From Hornefia porci (lineage in GTDB: Bacteria; Bacillota; Clostridia; Peptostreptococcales; Anaerovoracaceae): 64,000 nt of DNA. The notes beneath the pieces are model-generated. The model was given only the letters and a program-made list of their open reading frames with translations, was not told where the DNA came from and made no database searches. This document shows, in pieces, positions 27,162-63,685 of the stretch. The stretch covers positions 496,001-560,000 of the forward strand of contig NZ_MJIE01000001.1 of the NCBI RefSeq assembly GCF_001940235.1, written 5' to 3'. The first letter of the stretch is position 1. Each line of letters begins with the position of its first letter. Position numbers and translations under genes: made by a program.

Positions 27162-28613
27162 TTACTCTGGAAAGATAGATTTTAAAAAATAAGCCTTGTT
27201 CCTGACAGATTTTGTACGGATGATTATCACCGTTCCATCAAGGAAATGATACTCGGTATCACCACTGCTATGATAAATGCAATGCTCAAACACCTTGCTT
27301 ACAAGGCTAATATCCATTTTCGTAAGCGGCTCCATACCATCAGTGATTGCAATAAATTGCTTAGCCCGGACACGTTCGAGTGCGTTCTCTGAATTTAGCA
27401 TTCTCTCCCACTTTCGCATATTCGTTTTTCTTCTGGAAAGGATCTTATTCCAGGCGGCCACAAAGCCATCAAACAGTTCCCGTTCATAGAGGACATCGCT
27501 TTCAACGCAGTGGCGCTTCCCTTTTTCCCTATATCTTTGTCCGCACTCCCAGGTAATCACCTTCCCCCAGCTTCTGGTAAGCGTTCTTCTCGAATATGTA
27601 TGACCGCAGCAACCGCAGATAACCTTATGCGAAAACGGCCTCTTATCTGTAAACTGGCCAAGCGTGGTAAGTTTATGTTCCTTCATGAATGCCTCTCGCC
27701 TGTCAAGCTCAATCTGCACAGCCTCCCATATTTCTTTATCTATAATTGCCTCGTGATCATTTTTAATGTGATACATCGGAAGCTGCCCTTCATTCTTTGC
27801 AATCTTATGTGACAGAAAGTCCGGCGTGTACCATTTCTGCAGGTATACATCTCCCATATGCTTCTCATTACGAAGTGTTTGCTTTACAGTACTGACTTTC
27901 CAAGCTGGTTTTCCCAAGGCTCCAGGGATGCCCTTTTCGTTTAATGTCCGTGCAATGATATCCGGATTCATCCCTGTGATAAAGGCTGAATACATCCATT
28001 TGACCACCTTGGCCTGCTCCGGATTTTTGATAAGATTTCCTTCCTCATCCTTGTCGTAACCGTAAAATCGTGATGTGCACATTGACCATTTCCCCTGAGA
28101 GAATAATGACTGCTTCCCCCACACAACGTTCTCAGAGATTGCCCGGCTCTCGTCCTGCGCAAGGGATGCAAGAATTGTGAAGAGAAGCTCGCCGGATGCT
28201 GCTGTTGTATCCACATGCTCTTTTTCAAACAGGATGCCGATTCCCATATCCTTTAGCATCCGGGAATAATGCAGACAGTCCTGCGTGTTACGTGCAAAGC
28301 GGCTGATTGATTTAGTAATGATCATATCAATGAATCCAGCCTTACAGTCTTCGATCATCCTGTTAAACTCGCTTCGCTTTCTGGTGTTAGTTCCGGAGAT
28401 TCCTTCATCGGCATAGATTCCAGCCATCGTGTAATCAGGATTCTTCTCAATGTATTCGGTGTAATATGCCACCTGGTTTTCAAAGGAATTAAGCTGCTGA
28501 TCCTGCTCACTCGACACCCTGCAGTATGCTGCCACCCGAATTTTTTTCTTTTCCGTCACCTGCTTTCCGGCCATCCTTTTACTCGCAGGGATGCGTATGA
28601 TTTCTCTTGCCAT
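27162..28613 (-). CDS. Large serine recombinase (prophage integrase 1)
   Basis: Site-specific recombinase for integration or excision. Resolvase-type catalytic domain: AAYCRVSSEQDQQLNS (nucleophile in RVSS), YADEGISGTNTRKR, ITKSISRFARNTQD. Then the recombinase domain (YGYDKDEEGNL onward), one zinc ribbon (ICGCCGHTYS ... ECGQRY ... KRHC) and a helical C-terminus. Start at ATG 28613, two bases after the stop of the neighbouring recombinase; 483 residues, normal for a large serine recombinase. Confidence 0.93.
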   Translation of the reverse strand: MAREIIRIPASKRMAGKQVTEKKKIRVAAYCRVSSEQDQQLNSFENQVAYYTEYIEKNPDYTMAGIYADEGISGTNTRKRSEFNRMIEDCKAGFIDMIITKSISRFARNTQDCLHYSRMLKDMGIGILFEKEHVDTTAASGELLFTILASLAQDESRAISENVVWGKQSLFSQGKWSMCTSRFYGYDKDEEGNLIKNPEQAKVVKWMYSAFITGMNPDIIARTLNEKGIPGALGKPAWKVSTVKQTLRNEKHMGDVYLQKWYTPDFLSHKIAKNEGQLPMYHIKNDHEAIIDKEIWEAVQIELDRREAFMKEHKLTTLGQFTDKRPFSHKVICGCCGHTYSRRTLTRSWGKVITWECGQRYREKGKRHCVESDVLYERELFDGFVAAWNKILSRRKTNMRKWERMLNSENALERVRAKQFIAITDGMEPLTKMDISLVSKVFEHCIYHSSGDTEYHFLDGTVIIIRTKSVRNKAYFLKSIFPE

Positions 28614-28615
28614 AA

Positions 28616-30235
28616 TTAGTCCTTTCCGTACGGGCACTCATCTGAAGCCTCATACTCTTCTTTATCCATGTATGTAAAAAAACTGTTACCAATATCATCC
28701 GTGAATGGAATAACTGTAACAGGCTTTTTCAGTTCTCCCCAGGTATCTGAGATTTCTGCCGGAAGCGAACGCATCTGGCATCTTTTTCCTTGACTTTTAT
28801 ACCAGTTTTTTGCTGTTTTACATTTCCAGTAGGGAACCCCTCCTGTAAACCCATGAACCATGACTTCGCCGCAATATGGGCAGAAGAGTTTTCCGGAGTG
28901 AAGATAGGTATTTCGTGTGTATCTGTTCTTCCCTGACTCCGGTTTTTCAGGATGCTTTCTCCTTACCACATTACGCTTCTGCGTTTTTTTCTTTTTTGAT
29001 TTCTCAGGCCTGTGAAACTCGTTCGGATAGGTGTGATCCTGTTCCCATTCGATCTTGGGATAGGCTTCAACACGATCCATACCGTACTCGTCTTTATATT
29101 GAACCACTACAAGTTCCTCGTCTATACCTTCCCAGCCTTTCAGGAACTTTGCCGGAACATAAACACCCGGACAGCTTTCCGGCGACCATTTAAGACGCGT
29201 ACTGCACATCCAGTATTCAAAGCTCTGATCTTGATTCCATTTGTGATAGAGTTTGCAGCCGCAGTATGGACAGAAGAGTTTTCCGGAAAGTGGGTATGTG
29301 GACTGATTGGAATGCCTGATGCTTTTTACAGGAATTTTATGCGCATAGGCCTGCGACCTGTCATCCAGCACCTTCTGAACGGCATCCCACTGTTTTCGGT
29401 TTACGATAGCCGGATGTACATCTGTCAGGTGCCACTGATCAAGTTCTCCGGTATTCTTACACGTTTTCCGATGACCATCGTTATAGGTTTTCTGCAGAAT
29501 GCGATCACCCTTGTAGGCTTCATGGCGAAGCATCTTCCGGATCTGACCACCGCCCCACTTGCAGCCCTTTGGTGATGGAATGCCCTGTTCATTCAGGTAA
29601 CCGGCAATCTTACTTGCCCAGATTCCCTTTTCAGAAAGTTCAAAGGCGAGCCGGACAGTCTTTGCCTGCTCCTCATCAATGATAATCTCACCGTTCTCAT
29701 CCTCGGTGTATCCATACAACCGGGAGAGGTTAAAGTACGGTTCACCTCTTTTGAACTTATTTCGGATGGTCATCCGGACGTTTGATGAATTGCTCTCGCT
29801 TTCTGCCTGTGCAAAAGCCGCAAGGATAGTAAGCATCAGCTCCCCCTCCTGCGTCATTGTGTCGATGTTCTGAAGCTGAAAGAAAATCGCTACACCGAGT
29901 TCTCTCATCTCCCTTGATGCCTTTAGCACAGTCTCGGTGTTTCTTGCAAACCGGGAAACGCTTTTTACGACAATCATGTCAATCCTGCCTTTCCGAGCAT
30001 CCTGCAGCATCTTCTGAAACTGTGGCCTGTTTTCGCTATATCCTGTGATCCCCTGATCAGCATAGATCCCGGCAAACTCCCATGCTGGATTTGCTGTTAT
30101 AAAGCGTCTGAAATATACTGTCTGATTCACAAAGGAATCTTCCTGCTCATTACTATCCGTTGAAACCCGGACATAGGCGCAGACACGTTTCTTCTGAAGC
30201 TCTCTTTTTCTTGTTTCAATTTTCTGTACCTTCAT
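28616..30235 (-). CDS. Large serine recombinase (prophage integrase 2)
   Basis: Second recombinase of the same superfamily: CAYVRVSTDSNEQEDS (nucleophile in RVST), YADQGITGYSENRPQF, VVKSVSRFARNTET. It has two zinc ribbons (CPYCGCKLYH and CPYCGEVMVHG) separated by a Lys-rich linker, where integrase 1 has one. 539 residues; start at 30235 behind GGGAGG. Both recombinases are coexpressed from one promoter-like box. Which one performs integration, or whether both are needed as with CcrA/CcrB, cannot be told. Confidence 0.92.
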   Translation of the reverse strand: MKVQKIETRKRELQKKRVCAYVRVSTDSNEQEDSFVNQTVYFRRFITANPAWEFAGIYADQGITGYSENRPQFQKMLQDARKGRIDMIVVKSVSRFARNTETVLKASREMRELGVAIFFQLQNIDTMTQEGELMLTILAAFAQAESESNSSNVRMTIRNKFKRGEPYFNLSRLYGYTEDENGEIIIDEEQAKTVRLAFELSEKGIWASKIAGYLNEQGIPSPKGCKWGGGQIRKMLRHEAYKGDRILQKTYNDGHRKTCKNTGELDQWHLTDVHPAIVNRKQWDAVQKVLDDRSQAYAHKIPVKSIRHSNQSTYPLSGKLFCPYCGCKLYHKWNQDQSFEYWMCSTRLKWSPESCPGVYVPAKFLKGWEGIDEELVVVQYKDEYGMDRVEAYPKIEWEQDHTYPNEFHRPEKSKKKKTQKRNVVRRKHPEKPESGKNRYTRNTYLHSGKLFCPYCGEVMVHGFTGGVPYWKCKTAKNWYKSQGKRCQMRSLPAEISDTWGELKKPVTVIPFTDDIGNSFFTYMDKEEYEASDECPYGKD

Positions 30236-30255
30236 GGTATCCCTCCCTTCGATTG

Positions 30256-30293
30256 GCAGTACTATAAATCACTCTGTCTTCGCGATTAGTCAA
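30256..30293 (-). promoter_or_regulatory. Promoter-like box E, upstream of the recombinases
   Basis: TTGACT (30288-30293), 11 bases, CAGAGTGA (30269-30276), then TTTATAGT. One of five copies of the same bipartite motif in the prophage. It lies 21 bases before the start of integrase 2. Confidence 0.6.
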
Positions 30294-30329
30294 GTAATAA
30301 AGCGGCTGTTCACCCCAGAGTTTTTAAAG

Positions 30330-43813: not shown

Positions 43814-43814
43814 C

Positions 43815-43834: not shown

Positions 43835-43856
43835 TTGTTGGGTATCTCAAGATGTG

Positions 43857-45773: not shown

Positions 45774-45845
45774 CCAGTGTCCTCCATATTCAGTTTTCAA
45801 GGTACAATGCCGCACAGAGGCGGCGAAAATTTCTGCTTATATCTA

Positions 45846-46790
45846 TCACCTTTCCTTTACCGTGTGCCGCTGCTGACGTTTCAGTTCCGCCAGTATATCC
45901 GGCGGGATACGGTCAACCAGCCGCTGTAAATTGTCCAGTTCGCTTTTCAGCTTTGCCCGTTCCATCGTATCTTTCATCTTTCCTTTTTCGCTGGCCTTTG
46001 CCCTTGCTTCCAACTTCTCATTCTCCGCCAGCAGGTCATTGATTGTGACCTTGTACTTTTTCAACTGCCCGGAGAAATTCTCCATCTGCGGGAACCACTT
46101 TTTCAGCATGGAGAGGGCTTCCTCTTTTTTCTTTCCGGCGTTCAGCGGGTTAATGCCGTCCAGTGTGGCTTCAATGGCTCTTGCCTGCCGGGAGAGGGAA
46201 ACCGCCTGTTTGAAAAGCCGGGTGGGGATATGCTTCCGGCCTGTCCTGCTGGCGCTCTCCCCACGCTCCAAGTCAGGATATTTCTCCACCATATAGGCGT
46301 GAAAATCGTCCTGCCACTTCGTCAGGTTTGCCCGGTTGCCGATAATCTCCTTTGCACACAGGCGGTTGTCCTTTGTCAGCGGAACAAAGGTCAAATGCAG
46401 GTGGGGCGTTTTCTCGTCCATGTGTACCACCGCCGACACGATATTTTCCCGTCCTACCCGGCCAATGAGGAAGTCCGCCGCCCTCTGGAAAAACGCCTGT
46501 ATCTCCTTTGGGGATTTCCCCTTGAAAAACTCCGGGCTGGCAGTTACCAGCGTATCGACAAACCGTGTGCTGTCCTTGCGGGTTCGGCACCCGGCCTGTT
46601 CAATGCGGTTTTGAATGAAATGATAGTACCTGCCCTCTGGCTTGACGATATGAAAGTTGTACTTGCTCCGGCTTGTGTCAATGTCGGGGTTGCTGGCGTA
46701 TTGTTCTTTCTGTCTTTCGTGATGGGCTTCCAGCGGCCTTGCCGGGTTGCCCTTGTGCTTCTCAAACCGCAAAATTGCGTGTTGTGCCAT
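45846..46790 (-). CDS. MobV-family relaxase (Mob/Pre, TnpZ-like)
   Basis: Nicks oriT and pilots single-strand transfer in conjugative mobilization. MAQHAILRFEKHKGNPARPLEAHHERQK contains the N-terminal MobV motifs, and VVHMDEKTPHLHLTFVPLT is the HxDExxPHxH metal motif. The 314-residue protein ends in a Lys/Glu coiled coil. Start 46790 behind AAAGGAGC. The corresponding pMV158-like oriT is 4.3 kb away at the other end of the element. Confidence 0.92.
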   Translation of the reverse strand: MAQHAILRFEKHKGNPARPLEAHHERQKEQYASNPDIDTSRSKYNFHIVKPEGRYYHFIQNRIEQAGCRTRKDSTRFVDTLVTASPEFFKGKSPKEIQAFFQRAADFLIGRVGRENIVSAVVHMDEKTPHLHLTFVPLTKDNRLCAKEIIGNRANLTKWQDDFHAYMVEKYPDLERGESASRTGRKHIPTRLFKQAVSLSRQARAIEATLDGINPLNAGKKKEEALSMLKKWFPQMENFSGQLKKYKVTINDLLAENEKLEARAKASEKGKMKDTMERAKLKSELDNLQRLVDRIPPDILAELKRQQRHTVKER

Positions 46791-46930
46791 TCTGCTCCTT
46801 TCCCCATTCCTTTCCTATCCGGGGTTTTCCACAGGGAAAATCCCGCAGAAATTAGCTCGGATAGGATTGGAATGGATAGAATATAAATAAATCTTTTTAA
46901 TCTTTGTATTTCTATATACCGTCCGGTTTT

Positions 46931-46969
46931 CGTACTTCCGGGGAGTGATTTCCTCACTTCATAAGTACG
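46931..46969. repeat. Nested inverted repeat between relaxase and RepA genes
   Basis: CGTACTT (46931-46937) faces AAGTACG (46963-46969), with AGTGA/TCACT nested inside. It could be a replication or regulatory site of the element; its role is unknown. Confidence 0.4.
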
Positions 46970-46973
46970 GTTT

Positions 46974-47369
46974 TCAGCCCTCCGGCGTACCAGAACCGGA
47001 TTTCTTGAAGTCGGTGTTTGGAACCGCTTCATAGGATTTTGGGAAAATGCGGTTGGGTTTTCCACAGCCCTGCTTCTGGATCTCCACCAGCCCGGCGTAT
47101 TGCAGTTCCCGCAGGGTGTTTACCGCTTTCTGCCGCCCACAGTGGAGCAGGTCAACCACCTCGCAGATGGGATAGTACAGATAAATCCGTCCGCAATCAT
47201 CCGCCCACCCATTCTTGCGGGATAACTCTGTCCGGCGCAGGATAAAGGCGTACAGAACCTTTGCCTCGTTGGACAAGGGCTTGAATGTGGGGGCTTCAAA
47301 GAGGAAATTCGGGAGCCGGGTGAAGCTGAACGCCTTTTCCGGCTGATGGATATAGATGGTATTTGTCAT
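46974..47369 (-). CDS. RepA_N-domain replication initiator-like protein
   Basis: 131 residues: YIHQPEKAFSFTRLPNFLFE, LSNEAKVLYAFILRRTELS and LLHCGRQKAVNTLRELQYAG are typical of the RepA N-terminal (replication initiator protein A) winged-helix domain found in plasmids and integrative elements of Firmicutes. The protein is only the N-terminal domain size, so it may be an accessory or autonomous mini-initiator. Start 47369; the 110 bases before it contain small hairpins (e.g. AGCCCCGGTTTGGGGCT). Confidence 0.85.
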   Translation of the reverse strand: MTNTIYIHQPEKAFSFTRLPNFLFEAPTFKPLSNEAKVLYAFILRRTELSRKNGWADDCGRIYLYYPICEVVDLLHCGRQKAVNTLRELQYAGLVEIQKQGCGKPNRIFPKSYEAVPNTDFKKSGSGTPEG

Positions 47370-47480
47370 AGTGCGTTTTGTGGACGGTTAGAAGCCCGTT
47401 TTCCGGGGCGGGCGATACTTTATACCACCAGCCCCGGTTTGGGGCTTGCGAAGCCTGATAAATCAAGGCTTTTTTCGCTC

Positions 47481-47894
47481 CTAACTGTCCACAGCAGACC
47501 TCCTTTTCCGTTCACTTTCTGTTTTCTGCCGCCTGTGAACTCTGGCGGCACAGCCGGGGCAGTATTTTGCCCGGTTGGATTTGGGGACGAACACACCGCC
47601 GCAGACCTCACAGCGTTTCAAGTCCTTATCCCGGAAAATCTCCGCTTCCAGCGTCCCGTCCAGCGGCAAGACCGCCCAGCGGAACCACTTACAGCAGACC
47701 GAGAAAGAAATCGTCTGCGGACAGGTGCAGGTGTCCCCATCGTCAAGGACAATGCAGTTGCCGTCCTCACAGCAACAGCACTCCCGGCGTATCAGGCTGG
47801 CCGCCTGTTTTCTCTGCGCCGGGGTCATGCGGTAAAGGGAACCGTCCGGCCTGCGTTCCAGCGGCGGCAAGTCTTTATAGGGGTTATCTCTCAT
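47481..47894 (-). CDS. Cysteine-rich VLP-domain protein
   Basis: 137 residues from ATG 47894 behind GGAGGG. MTPAQRKQAASLIRRECCCCEDGNC and the later KRCEVCGGVFVPKSNRAKYCPGCA match the Cys_rich_VLP protein common in conjugative and mobilizable elements of Clostridia; at least 15 cysteines suggest two metal-binding clusters. The C-terminal ribbon resembles a zinc finger. Function unknown; it lies next to the repA-like and relaxase genes in such elements. Confidence 0.85.
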   Translation of the reverse strand: MRDNPYKDLPPLERRPDGSLYRMTPAQRKQAASLIRRECCCCEDGNCIVLDDGDTCTCPQTISFSVCCKWFRWAVLPLDGTLEAEIFRDKDLKRCEVCGGVFVPKSNRAKYCPGCAARVHRRQKTESERKRRSAVDS

Positions 47895-47990
47895 GCGTTC
47901 CCTCCATTTTGCTTTCCGTTGCCGTTCTCCCCGAAAAGGTTTCCTGCCCCATTCCTGCGGCGTGTTCCGGCGTTGGCACGCTCCTCGCAA

Positions 47991-48013
47991 CTTCGGGACA
48001 TTTTGTCCCGAAG
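47991..48013. repeat. 23-bp palindrome, copy 1
   Basis: CTTCGGGACA-TTT-TGTCCCGAAG, perfect 10-bp arms. A degenerate second copy is at 50872-50894, beyond the cargo genes. It lies within the 338-base gap between the VLP and XRE genes. Confidence 0.75.
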
Positions 48014-48120
48014 TCCGACTCCTTGCGGTGCTTCCCCAGCCGGGGTATTCCTTTTCGGACGGTCATTCTGTTTTCAAGGTGCCGTCCATCGATGAACTAC
48101 CCTAAGTCTACACGAAAAAA

Positions 48121-48205
48121 ATGCAATTCCCGGAATATTGCGAGAATTGCATTTTGATGAAGTTTACACTTTGGAAATTGCATTTTTGCAATCATTCTGT
48201 ATAAT
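48121..48205 (+). promoter_or_regulatory. Promoter and four-half-site operator of the element's XRE regulator
   Basis: TTGCAT (48178-48183), 16 bases, TATAAT (48200-48205) precede the regulator. ATTGCA-TTTT-TGCAAT (48177-48192) is a perfect palindrome over the -35. A second pair, ATGCAATTC (48121-48129) and GAATTGCAT (48144-48152), lies upstream. The shared half-site TGCAAT(T) suggests autoregulation by the XRE protein. Confidence 0.65.
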
Positions 48206-48232
48206 GGAAGTATGCGGAGGAGGTGCGTATCT

Positions 48233-49036
48233 ATGGCTTTACCCGGAACGCCCGGACAGCGGATTTCCGATTTATGCAACGGGAACCACATCACACAAAA
48301 GGAACTTGCGGAGAAGATAGGCGTTTCCGCTTCCCAGTTGAGCCGCATTGTCAGCGGCGAAACAAGAACGGTCAGCAGTGATATTCTCATAGGTGTGGCA
48401 AAGGAATTTAAGGTATCGACAGACTACATACTGGGCTTGTCTACCGTGAGCGTTCGTAAAAGCTACGATATTTCTGAATTAGGCTTGTCCGAGGGAGCCG
48501 TGAGGGGGCTTGTGACGGGTGCTGTTGATGTGCAAATCCTCAACCGCCTGTTGGAACACAGGAATTTTCCTAAGCTGATAGATTTGATACGGATTTATTT
48601 TCAGGATACGGCGGCAAAGGGCATAACAGCAAGAAACCAGCTTATCGAGATGGCAACGGCTTCCCTGTCCGACCTGATGAAAGAACACCCGGAACACCGG
48701 GCAGAAGCGAAGCAGGATTTACAGCTTTTGAACGCCCAAAAGATAGGGGAACATGAAGCGGAGATTGAAAAAATCAAAAATGTGTTCCTGGCTATCCTGC
48801 GGGACATTAAGAAAGACATTGACAACGGGGAACAGCCGGGAGAAGCTGTGACCGCCGCTATGTTCCAAGCCATGCGGGACGCACTGGCGGAACAGAAACA
48901 AAAACCACTTTCCATTGACGATGTAACGGCGATGATAGCTGGACAGATCGGACAGCTTACACCGATGGATAAAGAAACTGTTGAAATGTTCCAGCAGTTT
49001 GCGAAGAAGATGATTGAGCAGGCAGGAACAAAGTGA
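48233..49036 (+). CDS. XRE-family regulator of the mobilizable element
   Basis: 267 residues from ATG 48233 behind GGAGGAGG. An N-terminal helix-turn-helix (ITQKELAEKIGVSASQLSRIVSGETRTVSSDILIGVAKEF, about residues 20-60) is followed by a long alpha-helical region, partly coiled coil, without membrane segment. It is the first plus-strand gene of the element and reads toward the cargo. It probably represses its own promoter and may govern the divergent mobility genes. Confidence 0.88.
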   Translation: MALPGTPGQRISDLCNGNHITQKELAEKIGVSASQLSRIVSGETRTVSSDILIGVAKEFKVSTDYILGLSTVSVRKSYDISELGLSEGAVRGLVTGAVDVQILNRLLEHRNFPKLIDLIRIYFQDTAAKGITARNQLIEMATASLSDLMKEHPEHRAEAKQDLQLLNAQKIGEHEAEIEKIKNVFLAILRDIKKDIDNGEQPGEAVTAAMFQAMRDALAEQKQKPLSIDDVTAMIAGQIGQLTPMDKETVEMFQQFAKKMIEQAGTK

Positions 49037-49064
49037 TAAATTTGAATTGTGAGGGAAAATACAG

Positions 49065-49610
49065 ATGAATCAAGGAAGAATTATTGTGATTACAGGCTCA
49101 CCGGGGACAGGAAAAACAACAACTGCGTCAATTGTCGCAAAGGAATCAGATATGGATAAATCAGTGCATATGCACACCGATGACTTTTTTCATTACTTAA
49201 GCAAAGGCGCAATACCACCACATTTGCCAGAATCCAACGAGCAAAATCTGGTTGTCATTGAAGCCTTTTTAGAAGCTGCAAAGCGATATGCTCGTGGCGG
49301 ATATGATGTAATTGTAGATGGGATTGTCGGGCCATGGTTTTTGGAGCCATGGAAAGCTCTTGCCCAAGAAGATTACGAGGTACACTATATTGTATTAAGA
49401 GCGAGTAAAAAAGAAACTATGAAGCGAGCTGTGGAACGCTCAAAATTAGATAGAAAAACAAATATTGAATTAGTGGAAACAATGTGGGAGCAATTTTCCG
49501 GTTTGGGAGTATATGAATCAAATGTCATAGACACAACTACATTCACAATTAAAGATACGGTTTCCGCAATAAAAGAAAGAGTTGCATGTGGGACGTCTTT
49601 ACTATCTTAG
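49065..49610 (+). CDS. P-loop kinase of the AAA_33/zeta-like class
   Basis: 181 residues: GSPGTGKTT (11-19) is Walker A, MHTDDFFHYLS resembles the acceptor-binding loop of small-molecule kinases, and DVIVDGIVGPWFLEPW follows. The lid region is Arg/Lys-rich (AVERSKLDRKTN). Chloramphenicol phosphotransferase-like and zeta-toxin-like ATPases share this pattern; the substrate is unknown. It precedes the ANT(6) gene and is visibly AT-richer than the mobility genes, so it probably arrived with that cargo. An antibiotic-modifying role is only a guess. Confidence 0.75.
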   Translation: MNQGRIIVITGSPGTGKTTTASIVAKESDMDKSVHMHTDDFFHYLSKGAIPPHLPESNEQNLVVIEAFLEAAKRYARGGYDVIVDGIVGPWFLEPWKALAQEDYEVHYIVLRASKKETMKRAVERSKLDRKTNIELVETMWEQFSGLGVYESNVIDTTTFTIKDTVSAIKERVACGTSLLS

Positions 49611-49652
49611 ACATTCCCATTTGTCAGGAAGATAGCAAAGCCAGCCGAGCCA

Positions 49653-49697
49653 GTCAACGGTCAAGATGAACGGCGCATTTCATGCGCCGCCGTTGAC
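49653..49697. repeat. Nested hairpin between kinase and ANT(6) genes
   Basis: GTCAACGG (49653-49660) faces CCGTTGAC (49690-49697) and contains GGCGCAT/ATGCGCC. It lies in a 175-base GC-rich gap in otherwise AT-rich cargo. Transcript-end or leader structure is possible. Confidence 0.5.
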
Positions 49698-49785
49698 AGT
49701 CCCGCCCGTCTTTGCTAAAGGGTAATCAAGGCGGGAAAGCCCTAAAATGGCTTCACACCTATTTCAATAATTGGAGGAGATAAAA

Positions 49786-50652
49786 ATGAGATCAGAAAAG
49801 GAAGTTTATGATATTGTTTTGAATTTTGCAAAAACAGACAAACGCATTCGCATGGTTACTTTGGAAGGATCTAGAACAAATACAAATATTCCGCCTGATG
49901 ATTTTCAGGATTTTGATATTACTTTTTTTGTTACGGATATGGACAGCTTCACAAGTGATGATAAATGGCTAGATATATTTGGTGAAAGGTTGATTCTGCA
50001 AAAGCCGGAAGATATGGAATTATTTCCAGCTGTAGAAAAGGGATTTTCATATTTAATGCTGTTTACTGATGATGTTAAGATAGATTTAACTTTGCTGCCG
50101 CTGGAACTGATAGACGAGTATTTTACATGGGATAAACTGGTAAAGTTACTGTTGGATAAAGACAACCGTATCGTAAAGCCGCCAATACCAACGGATATAG
50201 ACTACCACTTGCAGAAGCCTACTCAAAGAATGTTTGACGATTGCTGTAATGAATTTTGGAATACTACAACATATGTAGTAAAGGGCTTATGCCGCAAAGA
50301 AATTCTTTTTGCTATTGACCATATGAATGATATAGTACGAAAAGAATTGCTTCGCATGATTTCCTGGCTGATTGGTATCAAACAGGGATTTCATTTCAGT
50401 TTGGGAAAAAACTATAAATTTATGAAGCAATATGTCCCAGAGGAATTGTGGGAACGACTTATGTCCACTTATAATATGGATTCCTATCCCCATATGTGGG
50501 AATCCTTTGAACAATGTATGGCATTGTTCCGGGAGGTTTCGTCAGAAGTGGCATGCCAGTTGGATTACCAGTATCCACTATATGATGAAAAAATCAGTAA
50601 TTATGTGATTCGGCAAAAGAAAAAATATGGCATTGAAGATGATAACAAATAA
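49786..50652 (+). CDS. Aminoglycoside 6-nucleotidyltransferase ANT(6) (aadE type)
   Basis: Adenylates streptomycin at O-6, predicted to give resistance. 288 residues from ATG 49786 behind GGAGGAG. The polymerase-beta-like nucleotidyltransferase motif is LEGSRTN (G28, S29) with carboxylates in FQDFDITFFVTD (D42, D44); LFGERL-like WLDIFGERLILQKPEDMELFP, FDDCCNEFWNTTTYVVKGLCRKEILFAIDH and LGKNYKF are ANT(6) hallmarks. It reads more like the ANT(6)-Ib branch than Ia. All active-site motifs are intact. Confidence 0.93.
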   Translation: MRSEKEVYDIVLNFAKTDKRIRMVTLEGSRTNTNIPPDDFQDFDITFFVTDMDSFTSDDKWLDIFGERLILQKPEDMELFPAVEKGFSYLMLFTDDVKIDLTLLPLELIDEYFTWDKLVKLLLDKDNRIVKPPIPTDIDYHLQKPTQRMFDDCCNEFWNTTTYVVKGLCRKEILFAIDHMNDIVRKELLRMISWLIGIKQGFHFSLGKNYKFMKQYVPEELWERLMSTYNMDSYPHMWESFEQCMALFREVSSEVACQLDYQYPLYDEKISNYVIRQKKKYGIEDDNK

Positions 50653-50871
50653 AATTTTTTCAATCGAAAAAATTTATTTTGATTATTCAATTTTGAAAAA
50701 CTGAATACCTCAAAATCAGAAAGAGAGCGGCCAAGCACTTTGAGGGATTGGCCGCCTTGTCCACCCATCCAGCGGGACAGCGGGCGGAGGTCAAGGCCGG
50801 GTGTAAACCCGTTCATTTCAGCCTTGACGGTTGCCCGTTGTCCTGCTACTTTTCCGGGAGTGTGGCCACAA

Positions 50872-50894
50872 CTTCGGGACACTTTGTCCACAAG
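50872..50894. repeat. 23-bp palindrome, copy 2 (degenerate)
   Basis: CTTCGGGACA-CTT-TGTCCACAAG, differing from copy 1 at 47991-48013 in three positions; here CAACTT/AAGTTG extends the pairing. Confidence 0.65.
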
Positions 50895-51063
50895 TTGGAG
50901 CGTAGGACGAGGAACTGGGGCTTTCATATACGCCCTGTCTGCTGATGAGTCCAGACCTGCGCTTGCGGCTCCACGCCACGCAAGCACAGCCCTGTTTTCC
51001 TGCCGCTTCAAATGCCCTTGCCCTCCCCGGCGGCAACGGCATTTTCACGGCAACGCCGGCAGA

Positions 51064-51104
51064 GCGTATAACACACTACACTTTGCTTCGCAAAGTCGTG
51101 TGCC
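51064..51104 (-). other. oriT of the MobV/pMV158 type
   Basis: On the minus strand GCACACGACTTTGCGAAG, then CAAAGTGTAGTGTG and TTATAC. This matches the pMV158 oriT layout: inverted repeat (GCACAC-ACTTT / AAAGT) followed by TAGTGTG/TTA, the known MobM nick. The predicted nick is between 51072 and 51071 on the minus strand. The family agrees with the relaxase at 45846-46790. Confidence 0.8.
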
Positions 51105-51137
51105 AAATGGGGGCGTTGCCCCCTTTGGAAACCCCCA

Positions 51138-51189
51138 CAAGAAAAGGCGGTACGCTACCCCTCCACGGGGCGCATACCGCCTTTTCTTG
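51138..51189. terminator. Long bidirectional hairpin near the right end
   Basis: CAAGAAAAGGCGGTA pairs with TACCGCCTTTTCTTG; A-rich on one side and T-rich on the other, so it can terminate in both directions. It may isolate the element's right end from flanking transcription. Confidence 0.7.
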
Positions 51190-51245
51190 TTATCCAGCCC
51201 TCCGGCTGTATCGGTTGAGCAAAAGTCCGCGTGGGATTGATGTGG

Positions 51246-51265
51246 TATCTTTAACTTTGGGAAAC
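51246..51265 (-). repeat. Right terminal inverted repeat of the element
   Basis: Read on the minus strand: GTTTCCCAAAGTTAAAGATA, 18 of 20 identical to the left end. Confidence 0.88.
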
Positions 51266-51376
51266 TCCCTTCTCCCACTTGGAAATAGTCTGTCTTGTGA
51301 CATGGAGCCTGTTTGCCAGAGCCTCTTGGGTGAAGCCTTTGTTTTTTCTGATTGTCTTTAAGTTCTGATTCAGCAT
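51266..51376 (-). pseudogene. 5' half of split XRE-family membrane regulator
   Basis: ATG 51376 behind AAGGAGG reads MLNQNLKTIRKNKGFTQEAL ... TRQTISKWEKG, a canonical XRE helix-turn-helix, for 37 codons up to GGA at the junction. It then runs into the element and stops after four codons (VSQS). Joined at GGGA to 43813 it continues KWEKG-YSVPDADML, the expected XRE sequence. The promoter remains attached to this half, so a ~41-residue HTH peptide could still be made. Confidence 0.9.
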
Positions 51377-51389
51377 TGACGCCACCTCC

Positions 51390-51443
51390 TTACACTGAAA
51401 TTCTTTACATTTTCAGTGTAAAGAGAGCATTGCGCACCATCAA
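51390..51443 (-). promoter_or_regulatory. Promoter and 11-bp inverted-repeat operator of the split regulator
   Basis: TTGATG (51438-51443), 17 bases, TACACT (51415-51420). TTACACTGAAA (51390-51400) and TTTCAGTGTAA (51411-51421) are perfect inverted arms spaced by 10 bases, covering the -10 and the start region. This fits autorepression by the XRE protein. Confidence 0.65.
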
Positions 51444-51508
51444 GCAACGCAAATTAACATCAGTGTTTTTCTTAATAATAGTCTACCATACAAAGTATCA
51501 TCCCTCCA

Positions 51509-51673
51509 TCAGAACTTATCGAAATCTTCCTGTGTAGCAAGCTGTCTGTATTTCACGCCATCGTTTGTTTTCTCCGTCCAGATATCCAGTACCAGACCCA
51601 CGGTCAGAAGATCGAGGTCTGATACGGATATCCCGATTTCTATGCAGCGCAGAAGGAACAGTGGCGTGGTCAT
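51509..51673 (-). CDS. Tail assembly chaperone, downstream ORF (gpT-like)
   Basis: 54 residues if started at the ATG at 51673, which overlaps the stop of the upstream chaperone as ATGA: MTTPLFLLRCIEIGISVSDL ... EDFDKF. It is the second half of the gpG/gpT pair in siphoviruses. The -1 frame is open back to the A7 run at 51697-51703, so it can be made as a gpG-T fusion of about 178 residues. Confidence 0.75.
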   Translation of the reverse strand: MTTPLFLLRCIEIGISVSDLDLLTVGLVLDIWTEKTNDGVKYRQLATQEDFDKF

Positions 51674-59314: not shown

Positions 59315-59591
59315 TTAGGCGTTCATCATTGCCCATGCAATCGCGTGTCCGTTGTCTTCAAACTCGACTTCGCTGACCGCTGCAAGGCCTATCGTTCCCT
59401 CGCAGGAAAGGTCATCGTCCAGATGCTCGTAAACCTGCGAAGTAGCAAGGCTTGTTTCTTCCGGTGTAGTAGTGCCCTGCGATCAATACCTTGTCGCCGT
59501 AGTTCAGGAGCTTGCTCCAGCGGCATTCGAGGTCTTCCGGTGTGGTCGGGTTTGGCAGCCTGTACTTTCTCATTCCTTCGTTAATGGTCAT
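59315..59591 (-). pseudogene. Small phage gene with a one-base frameshift
   Basis: ATG 59591 behind GGAGGATA reads MTINEGMRKYRLPNPTTPED ... LIAGHYYTG, then leaves frame and meets TGA after 60 codons. The +1 frame, open from before the break, continues PEETSLATSQVYEHLDDDLS ... AWAMMNA to a TAA at 59315. The shift lies near 59455-59470 in CACTACTACACCGGAAG, without a homopolymer. Family unknown. A sequencing error cannot be excluded. Confidence 0.7.
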
Positions 59592-59635
59592 TGTCTTATC
59601 CTCCTTGAAATTTCAGTGTTTTGCTTTCCTTTTGG

Positions 59636-59671
59636 TATGTGTATATTCGCTCTAACAGGAGGATATATCAA
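59636..59671 (-). promoter_or_regulatory. Promoter-like box A
   Basis: TTGATA (59666-59671), 11 bases, TAGAGCGA (59647-59654), then ATATAC. The leader from here to the ATG at 59591 is almost identical to the one at box B. Confidence 0.6.
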
Positions 59672-59720
59672 GTTAATTCTGCTTTTATTTTAAGTCTTTA
59701 TATCGATACAATATGTACGA

Positions 59721-59741
59721 GAGAAAGAGCCATAAAGCTCT
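59721..59741 (-). terminator. Short terminator after the 59762 gene
   Basis: AGAGC-TTTATG-GCTCT then TTCTC on the minus strand, 20 bases beyond the stop. Confidence 0.5.
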
Positions 59742-59761
59742 GTTCTCTGCCGCTTTCCAGC

Positions 59762-60103
59762 TTAGATGATCTCTTCTTCTTTCAGCTCGTCGTAGGTCTC
59801 TTCCAATATCTGTTCAAGCTCCTCCCAAGAGTCTACGATCCAGCGTGGCGCGCCCCACGGATTTGTCCGGCTTCCGTCGCCTGCCTCGGTGAGCTCCACG
59901 GCCTCGTCGGTTATGACCAGCCTGCCTTTATATTCAAAAATGAAGGCGGCTCCGTCGAAGTAGTCCCAGCACTCTTTTGCCTTCTTTGAAAAGCCCTCCG
60001 GAAGCGTAAGCTCGATGGCTTCCTTTGCTGCCGCCGGATCATTTTTGTCAATCGGGTACTCTCCGCAAAATGTAATCTGATTATCTTTCCTTAAGAATTT
60101 CAT
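59762..60103 (-). CDS. Unrecognised phage protein, 113 residues
   Basis: Acidic, soluble: MKFLRKDNQITFCGEYPIDK, FEYKGRLVITDEAVELTEAG and a Glu-rich end (ELEQILEETYDELKEEEII). No known domain seen. AAGGAGGCTGCC precedes the ATG; it follows the 60114 gene by 10 bases, so the two are cotranscribed from box B. Confidence 0.75.
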   Translation of the reverse strand: MKFLRKDNQITFCGEYPIDKNDPAAAKEAIELTLPEGFSKKAKECWDYFDGAAFIFEYKGRLVITDEAVELTEAGDGSRTNPWGAPRWIVDSWEELEQILEETYDELKEEEII

Positions 60104-60113
60104 GGCAGCCTCC

Positions 60114-60440
60114 TTAGAATGTCTCGATGTAGGTAAGGTTCATGCTTTGAAGATCATGGATAAGCTCCGCACCTCTTCTGATCTCGTCGGCTGTTATTAG
60201 AAGTTCCTCCGGCGTAGGGCTTCCGCCCATCTTCCTGACGCTTGCGCTTGCTTCAATGGCCTCCTCGACCCTTCTTGCCGCCCAGTCGGTGTTCTCTGTT
60301 GTCCTTGCAAGAAATGTGAAGTTCATTTCTTCGCTAATGATCTCCGGCAGGCCTGTCACGGTGCTCATCTTCTCGCTTACCGTAAAGCCGTGTGCTCTTG
60401 CTGCTTCTTTGATTCTTTCGCAAATTTCCATCTTTGTCAT
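60114..60440 (-). CDS. Unrecognised phage protein, 108 residues
   Basis: Helical: MTKMEICERIKEAARAHGFT, ENTDWAARRVEEAIEASASV and PTPEELLITADEIRRGAELI. No domain recognised. First gene behind box B, with GGAGGATA 5 bases before the ATG. Its leader is a near copy of that of the frameshifted gene at 59315-59591. Confidence 0.75.
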   Translation of the reverse strand: MTKMEICERIKEAARAHGFTVSEKMSTVTGLPEIISEEMNFTFLARTTENTDWAARRVEEAIEASASVRKMGGSPTPEELLITADEIRRGAELIHDLQSMNLTYIETF

Positions 60441-60482
60441 TGTCTTATCCTCCTTGAAATTTCAGCGTTTTGCTTTCCTTTT

Positions 60483-60520
60483 GGTATGTGTATATTCGCT
60501 CTGAATGCACATAATAGCAA
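60483..60520 (-). promoter_or_regulatory. Promoter-like box B
   Basis: TTGCTA (60515-60520), 11 bases, CAGAGCGA (60496-60503), then ATATAC; 63 of the next 65 bases to the ATG match box A. Confidence 0.6.
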
Positions 60521-60570
60521 GTTATATTTCGAGGATTTTAAGACTATATTTCGATACAATCACCACAAGC

Positions 60571-60590
60571 AAAAGAGCCTTCTGGCTCCT
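60571..60590 (-). terminator. Terminator after the 60606 gene
   Basis: GGAGCC-AGAA-GGCTC then TTTTG on the minus strand, 15 bases after the stop. Confidence 0.6.
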
Positions 60591-60605
60591 AAGCTCTGCT
60601 TATTC

Positions 60606-61082
60606 TTAGCAGACCGTGAAGTGGATTCCGAGGATCTCTTTTTCGCGGTTTTCTCCGAAGCGGCGTTCCCATCTTTTGATGGTGCAAAGCCCGTCCATCT
60701 TGCAGCCTGCTGCTGCAAATCCGTGCAGGTTTTCCATGACCGCTGTGCTCTGGTTGGTGTAAACGAAGGTGCCGATCCCGGCTTCCTTCAGGCAGCTTAC
60801 GAAGTCTTCCACCTCGCTCTCCCAAAGGAAATCGTCCATCTGCAGTTCCTCGTTTTCGTGCTCAATGCTCTCGCAAAATGCTCTGTAGGCTTTGCAGGCT
60901 CCCTGCGAAATCGGGAAAGTCATGTACGCCTTCTCAGCGTACCAGCCTTTAAGCTCCTCTGAGTCCCAGCTGTAGGTGTCAATGATCTCCTGCTTCTTTG
61001 CTTCATGGGCTTTCTTCGCCTCATCATAGACTCTTGCGATCTCCATCAGGTTATCAAAGTGTGCGTTTTCTTTCTTCAGCAT
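60606..61082 (-). CDS. Unrecognised phage protein, 158 residues
   Basis: Start MLKKENAHFDNLMEIARVYD at 61082, 8 bases after GAAGGAGG. Soluble, mixed charged; a coiled-coil-like start is followed by WDSEELKGWYAEKAYMTFPI and ERRFGENREKEILGIHFTVC. No family recognised. It forms its own unit between box C and a terminator. Confidence 0.75.
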   Translation of the reverse strand: MLKKENAHFDNLMEIARVYDEAKKAHEAKKQEIIDTYSWDSEELKGWYAEKAYMTFPISQGACKAYRAFCESIEHENEELQMDDFLWESEVEDFVSCLKEAGIGTFVYTNQSTAVMENLHGFAAAGCKMDGLCTIKRWERRFGENREKEILGIHFTVC

Positions 61083-61120
61083 TTTCTGTTCCTCCTTCAA
61101 ATGTATGTGTTCCTTTTTGC

Positions 61121-61156
61121 ATGTACATATATCACTCTGAAGGCAGATAATAGCAA
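61121..61156 (-). promoter_or_regulatory. Promoter-like box C
   Basis: TTGCTA (61151-61156), 11 bases, CAGAGTGA (61132-61139), then TATATG. A TTGACT partly overlaps upstream (61154-61159). Confidence 0.6.
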
Positions 61157-61182
61157 GTCAATTCTGCACATATTCTGAGTAT

Positions 61183-61581
61183 TTATTCCGATACTTTTTC
61201 GTCCTTGAGCTCATGGATCGCGGCGATAACACCTTCCTGATCTTCGATGTCCACGCCAATGGCTGCAAGGGCTTCTCTCGTACCACAGTCCGGACAGATT
61301 TCGGTCTTATTATCCCGGCGTGAAAGTGCCGGATGGCAGGTCAAACTGCCTCCGCAGACCGGACAGACCCGGCGCACAATATCCTCACCGTAGCATACCG
61401 ATAAGCTGGAGCCGTTATCCCAGCGCACCATGATCGATCCGATATCATCAACGCCTGTTACGGTACCGAGCGTTCCGGCTGGTGGTGCCTGCATATCATC
61501 CATTTTGACAAGCTCTATACGGGAGCCTGCCGGGTATCTTTTTCTGATACCCTCTACGATCTCTCTTGATGGGAATCTCAT
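61183..61581 (-). CDS. DUF4314-type protein with C-terminal zinc ribbon
   Basis: 132 residues. IRKRYPAGSRIELVKMDDMQ, APPAGTLGTVTGVDDIGSIM and VRWDNGSSLSVCYGED form the small beta-barrel DUF4314 module common in phage and plasmid genes of Clostridia. It is followed by RVCPVCGGSLTC ... EICPDCGTREAL, a four-cysteine ribbon. Function unknown; nucleic-acid binding is possible. ATGA overlap with the preceding gene. Confidence 0.8.
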   Translation of the reverse strand: MRFPSREIVEGIRKRYPAGSRIELVKMDDMQAPPAGTLGTVTGVDDIGSIMVRWDNGSSLSVCYGEDIVRRVCPVCGGSLTCHPALSRRDNKTEICPDCGTREALAAIGVDIEDQEGVIAAIHELKDEKVSE

Positions 61582-62357
61582 GCCTGCCCCCTCCCTTCTT
61601 TCTCCAGCCTTCTCTTTTCTTTCATGGCCGCTTTGAACTTCTCCGCGTCCTCGTCTGTCCGAAATGCTGAGTGACCAGCGAGCCTCTTTAGAAGGTGCAT
61701 TCTCGTTTCCTTATGCTCTGCTCCATCAAAGCCGAGGGAAACAATCCATACCCGGAAGTAATATTTCTCGTTTTCCGGTGTATGCTCCTTTGCCCTGATC
61801 CGCTTGGACTCCTTTGCCTTTTTCACCATCGCCGCTGCAAGCTCCGTGAAGGCTTTGTTTTTCCCGGGATCGTCTCCCATCGGGAAGGTAAATGTCACAG
61901 AATCTTCTTCTATGGCAAGCCCCGTGATGCCGCCTGCCTCGTTTATAAAGGCAAGCAAGCTTTCTTTATCTTCCTCCGATGTTTCTTTCATGAGGCCGAT
62001 CATCTCATCTGTTACGGAAAAATACTCGCCTCCTGCAGCCTTGTTCAAAAGGTACTGGCGGCTATACAGCATGTTCACAAGGTTTCGTATGCCCTGTGCA
62101 TCCAGATTCTCTGCCGCAATCTTTACGATGAGCTCCATCGGTACCTCCTCTGCGTAGCCTTCTTCAATCAGAAACGGCAGCAGCTTTTCTTCCAGAGCAT
62201 CATCCTCTGATGTAATACTCCCGTCTCGGTTTACGATTGCAGCTCCAATCTGGTAGGCAAAACTCGGTGCTCCGGCGTAGTGCATTTCTTCCCCGAGGAA
62301 GGCCGCCACCTGCTGCGCCATCTCTTTTCTGTTCTCTGCTTTTGTTTCAATTCTCAT
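61578..62357 (-). CDS. Unrecognised phage protein, 259 residues
   Basis: Acidic and helical, MRIETKAENRKEMAQQVAAF, with EIYF-like EKYYFRVWIVSLGFDGAEHKETRMHLLKRL near the end and a basic tail. I recognise no catalytic motif. First gene behind box D and coupled to the DUF4314 gene by ATGA. Similar genes occur among accessory genes of gut phages and plasmids in my recollection, with no assigned role. Confidence 0.75.
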   Translation of the reverse strand: MRIETKAENRKEMAQQVAAFLGEEMHYAGAPSFAYQIGAAIVNRDGSITSEDDALEEKLLPFLIEEGYAEEVPMELIVKIAAENLDAQGIRNLVNMLYSRQYLLNKAAGGEYFSVTDEMIGLMKETSEEDKESLLAFINEAGGITGLAIEEDSVTFTFPMGDDPGKNKAFTELAAAMVKKAKESKRIRAKEHTPENEKYYFRVWIVSLGFDGAEHKETRMHLLKRLAGHSAFRTDEDAEKFKAAMKEKRRLEKEGRGQA

Positions 62358-62390
62358 CTGTTTGACCTCCTTTTCCTTCAGTGGTTTTTT

Positions 62391-62428
62391 GGTAGTCTAT
62401 ACATCACTCTGAAGGCTCTATAAGTCAA
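62391..62428 (-). promoter_or_regulatory. Promoter-like box D
   Basis: TTGACT (62423-62428), 11 bases, CAGAGTGA (62404-62411), then TGTATAGA; 34 bases before the ATG at 62357. Confidence 0.6.
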
Positions 62429-62443
62429 GCAGATAATGTGTAT

Positions 62444-63685
62444 TTATTCAGATTCTTCCACCTCTGATACCGGGATCTTTTTACCGTCCCGGATCACATA
62501 AACATCCGTCTTTCCGGTCGCTTCCATGTAACGCCAGACGATGACGTCCACAAACTTTTCATCAAGCTCAACCCCGTAGCAGATCCGTCCTGTCTCCTCT
62601 GCTGCGATGAGCGTCGAGCCGGAGCCGAGAAACGGATCAAGCACGATGCAGTTGCTCATACAGGAGTTTTTCATCGGATATGCCATAAGAGCCACAGGTT
62701 TCATTGTCGGGTGCTCCCGGCTTGCCTTTGGCCTGTCATATTCCCAGACGGTTGTCTGCTTTCTGTCGGAGTACCATTGGTGCTTGCCGCCGATCTTCCA
62801 ACCGAAAAGGCATGGTTCATGTATCCATTGGTATGGGCTTCTCCCGAGCACCAGCGCATTCTTCTTCCATATGCAGCAGCCTGACAGATAAAAGCCTGCG
62901 TCCGTAAATGCCCGGCGCACAGTCAGGCCTTGCGTATCTGCATGGAATAAATAGATCGAAGCATCCGGCTCCATGTTCTGCTCCATATTTACAAGTGCCG
63001 CGAACAGGAACTTATAGAAGTCCTCGTCGGCCATATTGTCGTTTTTGATCTTCCCGGCGGTCTCCTCTACATCCACGTTATATGGCGGATCTGTTACTAC
63101 CAGGTTGGTCTTCTTTCCGTCCATCAGAGTATGAAATGTCTCCGGCAGCGTCGAGTCGCCGCAGACTACCCTGTGATCTCCAAGAATCCAAACATCACCG
63201 AGCTTTGCTTTCGTCGATTTTGCAAGCTCTGCTTCAACATCGAAATCATCCTCGGTAATATCCTTGTTATGTACCTTGGAGAAAAGCTGCCCGATTTCCG
63301 GTGGCTCAAATCCGGTCAGGTCAGTATTGAAATTTTCCTTCTGAAGGTCTACAAGAAGATCTGCGAGAAGCTGTTCATCCCACGCGCCTGTGATCTTATT
63401 GAGCGCAACGTTCAATGCTTTGACTTTTGCCGCATCTTCAATGTGTACCATTACACACTGGACGGTATCGTACCCCATATCTCGGAGTACGGTCAGCCGC
63501 TGGTGTCCGCCAATCACTGTCATATCGTAGTTAACAATAATCGGCTCAACGTAACCAAACTCCTGAATCGAATTCTTGATCTTTTCGTATTCCTTATCTC
63601 CAGCTTTTAGCTTCTTTCTCGGATTATATGTTGCTGGCTTAAGATCGCTTATGGCCAGTTCTTTCCATTCCATCGCCTTATCCAT
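62444..63685 (-). CDS. DNA methyltransferase fused to ParB-like domain
   Basis: 413 residues. The N-terminal ParB/sulfiredoxin-like domain (about 8-100) has NPRKKLKAGDKEYEKIKNSI and VIGGHQRLTVLRDMG. The methyltransferase (about 165-400) has DPPYNVD at 199-205 and later DPFLGSGSTLIAAEETGR, the order of beta-class amino-methyltransferases; N6-adenine is more likely than N4-cytosine. No restriction gene is seen beside it, so it is probably an orphan phage methylase that protects or marks phage DNA. Confidence 0.9.
   Translation of the reverse strand: MDKAMEWKELAISDLKPATYNPRKKLKAGDKEYEKIKNSIQEFGYVEPIIVNYDMTVIGGHQRLTVLRDMGYDTVQCVMVHIEDAAKVKALNVALNKITGAWDEQLLADLLVDLQKENFNTDLTGFEPPEIGQLFSKVHNKDITEDDFDVEAELAKSTKAKLGDVWILGDHRVVCGDSTLPETFHTLMDGKKTNLVVTDPPYNVDVEETAGKIKNDNMADEDFYKFLFAALVNMEQNMEPDASIYLFHADTQGLTVRRAFTDAGFYLSGCCIWKKNALVLGRSPYQWIHEPCLFGWKIGGKHQWYSDRKQTTVWEYDRPKASREHPTMKPVALMAYPMKNSCMSNCIVLDPFLGSGSTLIAAEETGRICYGVELDEKFVDVIVWRYMEATGKTDVYVIRDGKKIPVSEVEESE

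What the first reader, a model, noticed from the sequence alone, without database searches (positions are those of the whole stretch)
59636..62428. Promoter-like cassette repeated five times in the prophage
Minus-strand boxes at 59636, 60483, 61121, 62391 and 30256 share TTG(A/C)(C/T)(T/A), exactly 11 bases, then (C/T)AGAG(T/C)GA, then an AT-rich TATA-like stretch, each 20-60 bases before a gene with a strong ribosome site. Boxes A and B are near-identical for 65 bases through the start codon, and upstream pieces such as TTGTATCGA and GAATAAATAC recur. The spacing would be 21 to the TATA-like part or 17 to GATNTA/GAATAT, so this is not a plain consensus promoter. It links the recombinase genes to the accessory genes and may be a phage regulon read by a phage activator, repressor or sigma factor.
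Basis: seen in the sequence. Interest (0 to 1): 0.75.

Follow-up and report, generated by a model that had tools for sequence, protein, structure and literature searches.

The report
Gut-phage promoter linking recombinases and cargo
Five near-identical stretches of DNA in this prophage are copies of a promoter-like switch that a widespread group of gut bacteriophages places before its integration genes and its cargo genes, and what protein reads it is still unknown.

Summary
TTGNYW-N11-YAGAGYGA occurs five times in the window, all minus strand (100 Markov windows: mean 0.06, maximum 1). In the 2.8-Mb genome its exact copies lie only in this prophage (5) and a second one (3). It is not local: 305 unique, 125 non-redundant copies came from viral and genome contigs, and named carriers include Ca. 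Heliusvirales gut phages and phages of Streptococcus and Erysipelothrix. When only the downstream half was searched, TTG appeared unselected at the fixed distance (99, 97, 97% of 80 sites). 57 of 59 sites lie 52-105 bases before a start codon. A copy precedes the serine-recombinase operon in 17 of 18 compared phages, and the 'virulence-related' gene in 17 of 18 (my reading). So this is most likely a dedicated phage promoter class: -35-like and -10-like parts 17 bases apart with a conserved spacer TTCAGAG. The obvious reader, the PHROG_36/Ltr activator, is doubtful: some relatives carry other, phage-specific repeats after its gene, and two boxless phages have it too.

The parts
62384..62456 (-). 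Box 1, before the 259-aa 'virulence-related'/amidoligase-like gene (61578-62357); core TTG..GA at 62404-62428; element given as -63 to +9
   Evidence: (score 41.1)
61112..61184 (-). Box 2, before the DUF7698 gene; core 61132-61156
   Evidence: (score 64.7)
60476..60548 (-).
   Evidence: (score 33.1)
59627..59699 (-).
   Evidence: (score 25.3)
30249..30321 (-). Box 5, before the tandem serine recombinases; core 30269-30293; weakest copy
   Evidence: (score 12.1)
61578..62357 (-). First box gene: 'virulence-related' family protein, PHROG_2443 (annotated amidoligase); no significant PDB fold match
61183..61581 (-). DUF4314 protein, overlapping the first box gene, presumably the same operon
60606..61082 (-). 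DUF7698 protein after box 2
60114..60440 (-). 108-aa accessory protein after box 3, no Pfam or PHROG match
59762..60103 (-). 113-aa accessory protein, second gene after box 3, no Pfam or PHROG match
28616..30235 (-). Large serine recombinase after box 5
27162..28637 (-). Second large serine recombinase, overlapping the first, presumably the same operon
62444..63685 (-). ParB-N + N6/N4 DNA methyltransferase (PHROG_498) directly upstream of box 1; family in 18 of 18 compared box-bearing phages plus W19 and W20, not in W21-W23

Best explanation
The boxes are copies of a dedicated promoter class of Ca. Heliusvirales and related phages. Host RNA polymerase binds it through phased A/T tracts (about -62, -51 and -41), a -35-like element TTG(C/A)TA (here also TTGACT), and a -10-like element with A at -11, 17 bases apart; a phage-supplied factor reads the conserved spacer TTCAGAG (-20 to -14) and makes the otherwise poor promoter fire. 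Its regulon is the serine-recombinase operon and the accessory operons beginning with the 'virulence-related' gene, each copy working as an independent start. Shown: recurrence, fixed geometry, placement before genes, and near-restriction to phage-type genes where looked at. Inferred: that RNA starts there, that host polymerase is used, and that the specificity factor is phage-encoded.
For: Fixed geometry without selection: 80 non-redundant sites found by the downstream half show T, T, G at -15, -14, -13 in 99, 97, 97%. In 22 records of 1.17 Mb the spacer is 11 in 59 sites against 14 for all other lengths 3-19 together (most of those records were chosen because they hold the box). For the AGAGTTA variant, the right spacing gave 56 viral stretches and one base less gave 1. 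Three A/T tracts about 10 bases apart and the downstream CCAAAAGG were not part of the selection. 57 of 59 sites lie 52-105 bases before a ribosome site and start; the two others lie inside the SNF2 helicase gene (coordinates). Of 36 box-bearing records, 33 hold 2-5 strict sites; reversed control 1 in all. Recombinase and 'virulence-related' slots carry a box in 17 of 18 phages each (by reading; W07 checked). In the host's taxonomic family 10 of 119 genomes hold the pattern, reversed control 0; of 15 sites outside the own genome 14 read as full boxes, 13 with a start 54-78 bases on, 9 of them before recombinase or 'virulence-related' genes. So host genes seem not to use it, which points to a phage-supplied reader.
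Against: No transcript data. No reader identified: the families in all 18 compared phages are recombinase, methyltransferase, SNF2 and structural genes; the only regulator present in all is the two-type PHROG_36 protein, against which there is other evidence. The HTH/zinc protein family is in 11 of 18 by clustering. The box looks equally conserved in Streptococcus and Lachnospiraceae phages, which could also mean that the invariant host polymerase reads it alone.
Confidence: 0.58

Rival explanations
1. Host sigma-A polymerase alone uses the box: constitutive or infection-entry promoters for recombinase and cargo genes, like moron promoters.
For: Upstream A/T tracts, 17-base spacing and A at -11 fit the main sigma factor; the sequence is much the same in phages of very different hosts; box genes are separate from the presumed Ltr late promoter.
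Against: The box avoids the consensus: C rather than A at the fourth -35 position in 78%, G or T at -12, and a conserved TTCAGAG spacer; the sigma-70 scan marks 0 of 4; 109 of 119 genomes of the host's family have no copy, so host genes seem not to use it. Terminator-like hairpins lie between successive boxes in 10 of 26 intervals, no more than the density of such hairpins in the same genomes would suggest (no formal test), against a general moron layout.
Confidence: 0.2
2. The PHROG_36/Ltr late activator encoded just after the SNF2 helicase reads the boxes, which are then late promoters.
For: Matches at E up to 0.01 in 35 of 38, 11 of 14 and 18 of 19 records; present in all 18 compared phages; sigma-region-4-like C-terminal domain; [quoted passage not shown] In 12 of 17 phages, this prophage included, no convincing repeats follow its gene, so its target there is open.
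Against: Right after the gene, period-10 repeats that differ between phages stand out in OWN2 (ATGTCC), W14 (TTGGCAC) and W08 (TTGGCA) at 0 of 200 shuffles each, and less clearly in W02 (TTGCAAC, 5 of 200) and W09 (ATGTCC, 8 of 200); W03 (TGCAAC by eye) is not above chance in the test (33 of 200). The boxes of these phages do not follow that variation. Two quite different types of the regulator go with the same box. W22 and W23 have the regulator and no box. The family profile also rings in all 14 control cell genomes, so presence is weak evidence.
Confidence: 0.15
3. The boxes are operators of a repressor, or recombination sites for cargo cassettes, rather than promoters.
For: Boxes 3 and 4 are 67 of 70 identical through the start codon, as expected of duplicated cassettes; one copy lies at the recombinases; three of the 33 records with strict copies (G014, G021, W12) also hold one on the opposite strand.
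Against: 30 of those 33 records hold copies on one strand only, 57 of 59 lie 52-105 bases before starts, with promoter-like geometry and A/T tracts; no clear dyad by eye; nearly the same sequence in phages that must differ in immunity.
Confidence: 0.05
4. A structured RNA leader.
For: Conservation continues to about +9 into the presumed transcript.
Against: Consensus fold of 33 sites has energy -0.04 kcal/mol and no compensatory pair; no Rfam match at gathering scores in the window other than tRNA; the most conserved bases lie upstream of the presumed start.
Confidence: 0.02

Closest known systems
Ltr/RinA-type late promoter of Gram-positive phages (P23 of phage Phi13)
   Same: [quoted passage not shown] Phi13 paper seen as passages only.
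   Different: P23 needs 18-base repeats between -107 and -42 upstream of a TATA box and drives late genes; the box sits inside the promoter core, is present 2 to 6 times in most phages looked at and also stands before the recombinase operon.
T4 middle promoters (MotA box with AsiA) (recalled, from no call)
   Same: A phage-specific element takes the place of the -35 while a -10 part remains; multiple copies; host polymerase; the recalled MotA box resembles TTGCTA.
   Different: No AsiA or MotA homologue was sought; the box has a conserved part in the spacer too.
Ordinary sigma-A promoter with UP element
   Same: 17-base spacing, upstream A/T tracts, A at -11.
   Different: Non-consensus -35 and -10, conserved spacer; no copy in 109 of 119 genomes of the host's family.
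Candidatus Heliusviridae/Heliusvirales (de Jonge 2022, PMC9226167)
   Same: This prophage has all nine listed core genes.
   Different: The main text holds neither 'promoter' nor 'regulator' (0 occurrences each; passages seen), so the box is an added feature of that lineage.

Membership tests
Ca. Heliusviridae (prophage) | Nine shared genes: DUF2800, DUF2815, DNA polymerase I, VRR-NUC, SNF2 helicase, TerL, portal, Clp protease, major capsid | tested here: met
   for the list; one search finds all nine (PF10991, which I recall as the renamed DUF2815, at E 7.8e-77)
sigma-A consensus promoter | TTGACA and TATAAT-like hexamers 16-18 apart, at least 9 of 12 | tested here: not met
   marks none of the four boxes in 59500-62600; the 30256 box was not scanned
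sigma-A consensus promoter | Transcript start 6-9 bases after the -10 | not testable with these tools
   no RNA data
Ltr/RinA-type late promoter | Direct repeats upstream of the promoter core | tested here: not met
   in 75 bases upstream of 52 sites of 17 phages, only 1 site (box 3 here, TCGAAAT twice) has repeats of period 10, 11, 18 or 20-22 matched by at most 3 of 60 shuffles, no more than chance; only A/T tracts conserved from -70 to -37
Ltr/RinA-type late promoter | Activated by the regulator encoded just upstream | not testable with these tools
   needs an expression assay
[quoted passage not shown]
   position after SNF2 fits; repeats after the gene stand out in 3 of 17 phages and are suggestive in 2, none in this prophage
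Ltr family (protein L031:2519-3010) | Small basic protein | tested here: not met
   163 aa, but isoelectric point 5.16
T4 MotA-type middle promoter | MotA and AsiA homologues in the phage | not tested
   resemblance of the -35 part is recalled only

The most novel reading that the evidence does not exclude
A whole order of gut phages shares a second, lineage-invariant promoter class with its own dedicated reader, neither Ltr nor host sigma alone (candidates: the ParB-methyltransferase next to box 1, or an unrecognised sigma-remodelling protein). It ties recombinase expression to a set of swappable cargo cassettes, so any gene that acquires a box joins the integration programme.
Probability: 0.35. 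Interest if true: 0.78.

Novelty: new variant of a known kind. Interest (0 to 1): 0.62.

Why it matters
Ca. Heliusviridae were found in 190 of 196 participants of one cohort (bulk phage populations, PMC9226167, passage). A promoter signature of about 45 bases, readable without annotation, would mark which of their genes are controlled together with integration and excision. It gives a direct way to list cargo genes in many gut phages and makes the question of how these phages switch between integration and lysis testable. I found no description of it in the held library: the sequence strings occur in 3 papers, unrelated by title; 'Heliusvirales' in one review, not opened; a search for promoter motifs in clostridial prophages listed five papers, none opened. 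Searches for late activators gave nothing or listings, of which I saw one paper in passages.

Tried and rejected
Idea that AGAGTTA-type phages lack the regulator: suggested by G016 and G018, dropped because 11 of 14 such records match PHROG_36. Two of the three PHROG_36 misses (G010, G014) show no SNF2 gene in the parts fetched, so they say little.

HTH/zinc protein as universal reader: 11 of 18 box-bearing phages by clustering, so not universal at that sensitivity.

Moron layout with a terminator after every cassette: 10 of 26 intervals, about what the density of such hairpins would give; not supported as a general rule.

RNA leader: no covariation. Plasmids: only two weak matches at E 10. 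Fold of the 'virulence-related' protein: no significant PDB match; weak rows to Pup ligase, Dop and glutamine synthetase are not evidence.

W19 and W20 were first taken as boxless; the profile scan found 2 and 1 copies. W20 lacks the recombinase and 'virulence-related' clusters yet has a box. That leaves only W21-W23 as boxless relatives, too few to point to a reader.

Checked on review: in a first count I took repeats after the Ltr gene as present in 6 of 17 phages. One search listed repeats in 9 of 17, three of them (W04, W10, W12) AT-rich and not convincing; the shuffle test bears out 3 clearly and 2 weakly, and not W03. I moved the Ltr rival up and the best explanation down slightly for this; (regulator present in two boxless phages) works the other way.

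Sites dropped: near-duplicates before counts (124 to 80; 60 to 35; 305 to 125). In one search the script's class labels missed several cases; the 17 of 18 counts are my reading of its rows (W13 is the exception in both; W04's recombinase copy is a variant; W10's recombinase copy scores only 8.5). One row there (W01 43405, score 11.5) looks like chance. The cluster of 'virulence-related' proteins also takes in amidoligases. W16 and W18 were searched but not fetched. Some phages in the profile's training set and the tested records may be the same viruses under two names.
Full report
The pattern is real. TTGNYW-N11-YAGAGYGA occurs exactly five times in the 64-kb window, always on the minus strand, and no further copy appears at one mismatch. 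First-order Markov windows hold 0.06 on average and at most one (100 windows). In the whole 2.81-Mb genome there are eight exact copies: the five here and three in a second prophage at C1:2.455-2.479 Mb. There are 28 further sites at one mismatch, against 18 for the reversed control pattern, so a few of those may be more than chance; I did not follow them.

It is not a local repeat. A scan of viral contigs for the downstream half alone (TTCAGAGYGATRTATRKAC) stopped at 120 stretches. Of 124 distinct sites, 80 remained after removing near-duplicates; although nothing upstream was selected, CTTGCTATTA stood at a fixed distance in nearly all (T 99%, T 97%, G 97%). Selecting the upstream half instead returned the downstream part (35 non-redundant sites; the A of GA in all 35, TATATGTAC and ACCAAAAGG in most). 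A genome scan gave 29 stretches, in Lachnospiraceae, Oscillospiraceae, Absicoccus and an Ammonifex MAG among others; one, in a Sporocytophaga MAG, lacks the rest of the element and looks like chance.

Which phages carry it. Blastn of one box against named phages matched 32 records at E up to 10, among them gut phages of Ruminococcus, Agathobacter, Coprococcus, Dorea and Blautia, Streptococcus Javan phages, Erysipelothrix phi1605 and Terrisporobacter TPDSL_ph1. The 13 gut records that I opened carry the label Ca. Heliusvirales. The nine core genes of Ca. Heliusviridae are listed in PMC9226167 (passages), and this prophage has all nine. Plasmids gave two weak matches.

Where the copies sit. In 36 box-bearing records, 33 hold 2-5 strict copies and the reversed control one in all; in 30 of the 33 the copies are on one strand only. 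Of 59 strict sites in 22 records, 57 lie 52-105 bases before a ribosome site and start codon; the two others lie inside the SNF2 helicase gene. A 50-column profile from 125 sites finds copies in 25 of 28 records, the exceptions being the Pasteurella, Paenibacillus and Staphylococcus phages W21-W23; Markov shuffles of three times that DNA gave two scores above the threshold. Reading its rows, 17 of 18 compared phages have a box before the serine-recombinase operon and 17 of 18 before the 'virulence-related' gene (W13 lacks both; W07's recombinase was checked). The two places are 19 to 29 kb apart in 15 of these; here they are 32 kb apart, including an inserted element, and W04's record is permuted.

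Anatomy. Numbering the TTG as -35, the 125 sites show A/T tracts at -63 to -61, -52 to -50 and -42 to -39, with little in between, a spacing of about one helical turn as in UP elements; -35 TTG(C/A)TA; spacer G(G/C)C-N-TTCAGAG at about -24 to -14; A at -11; and CCAAAAGG from +2 to +9. TTG, AGAG and the A were part of the selection in that set; they were free (TTG; A). Three common -10 forms occur: GTGATATATG, GCGAATATG and GTTAATATG. The last marks a set of 56 viral stretches with up to six copies each (one base less in the spacer gave one). The profile also shows copies with TGG in place of TTG (W15, W17, W06, W07, G004, W20).

Probably not a host promoter. In 119 genomes of the host's family, 10 contain the pattern and the reversed control occurs in none; of 15 sites outside the own genome, 13 have a ribosome site and start 54-78 bases on (nine before recombinase or 'virulence-related' genes by reading), one more is a full box without a start in reach, and one is chance. 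Whether each lies in a prophage was not checked further.

Who reads it. The first suspect was the 163-aa protein encoded beyond the window after the SNF2 helicase (L031:2519-3010). The family profile is loose and rings in all 14 control cell genomes. The protein stands where the late regulator Ltr is described for phage Phi13, which needs repeats at -107 to -42 (PMC13123087, passages).

Three things speak against it. First, right after the gene some phages carry period-10 repeats that differ between phages: ATGTCC in OWN2, TTGGCAC in W14 and TTGGCA in W08 (0 of 200 shuffles each), TTGCAAC in W02 (5 of 200) and ATGTCC in W09 (8 of 200). OWN2 and W09, with the same repeat, have nearly the same recognition helix. 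The other 12 of 17 show nothing convincing, this prophage among them. Boxes of these phages do not follow that variation, and no such repeats stand upstream of the boxes (1 of 52 sites). Second, two unlike types of the regulator go with the same box. Third, W22 and W23 have the regulator and no box. I therefore think Ltr reads its own sites and something else serves the box, but this rests on few phages.

By gene content, the families in all 18 compared phages are the recombinases, the ParB-methyltransferase, SNF2, tape measure, portal, TerL and protease, with the 'virulence-related'/amidoligase cluster in 17 and W12 by eye. The ParB-methyltransferase, directly upstream of box 1 here, is also in W19 and W20, which have boxes, and not in W21-W23, which have none; three negatives of other lineages cannot prove a link.

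Best reading. A promoter class for host RNA polymerase whose specificity is completed by a phage factor, controlling integration genes and cargo separately from the presumed Ltr late promoter. Recurrence, geometry and placement are shown; transcription, polymerase and reader are inferred. I found no paper in the held library that describes it.

Noticed in passing
window 43289-51600: A mobile element appears inserted in the phage's late region between tape-measure and tail genes: serine recombinase with DUF4368, RepA_N initiator, a zeta-toxin/CPT-like kinase and a streptomycin adenylyltransferase. The ends are my guess.
   Followed up: partly
window 26649-27053: The prophage's recombinase end abuts the C-terminal part of dprA (PF02481 end and DprA winged helix), so the phage probably sits in dprA; the other end was not examined.
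   Followed up: partly
window 59412-59591: The gene after box 4 is a 59-aa frame, while relatives after the same kind of box have 91-92 aa (W14, W01): it looks truncated.
   Followed up: no
L035:6700-6790 and the same slot in W08 and W14 (weaker in W02, W09): Short direct repeats of period 10 and a TATAAT-like stretch just after the Ltr gene, differing between phages.
   Followed up: partly
L164, L185, L311, L331, L351: A set of phages in which nearly all copies read AGAGTTAATATG, up to six per phage; three of 14 records mix this form with AGAGCGA.
   Followed up: partly
L031:993-2307: Two genes of secreted-looking proteins (by their N-termini) lie between the regulator and the HNH gene of this prophage.
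   Followed up: no
L232 (MW387018): A box-bearing phage is recorded with Gardnerella as host, an actinobacterium; whether the host label is right was not checked.
   Followed up: no
window 18130-19495: Cluster of 14 tRNA genes on the minus strand.
   Followed up: no
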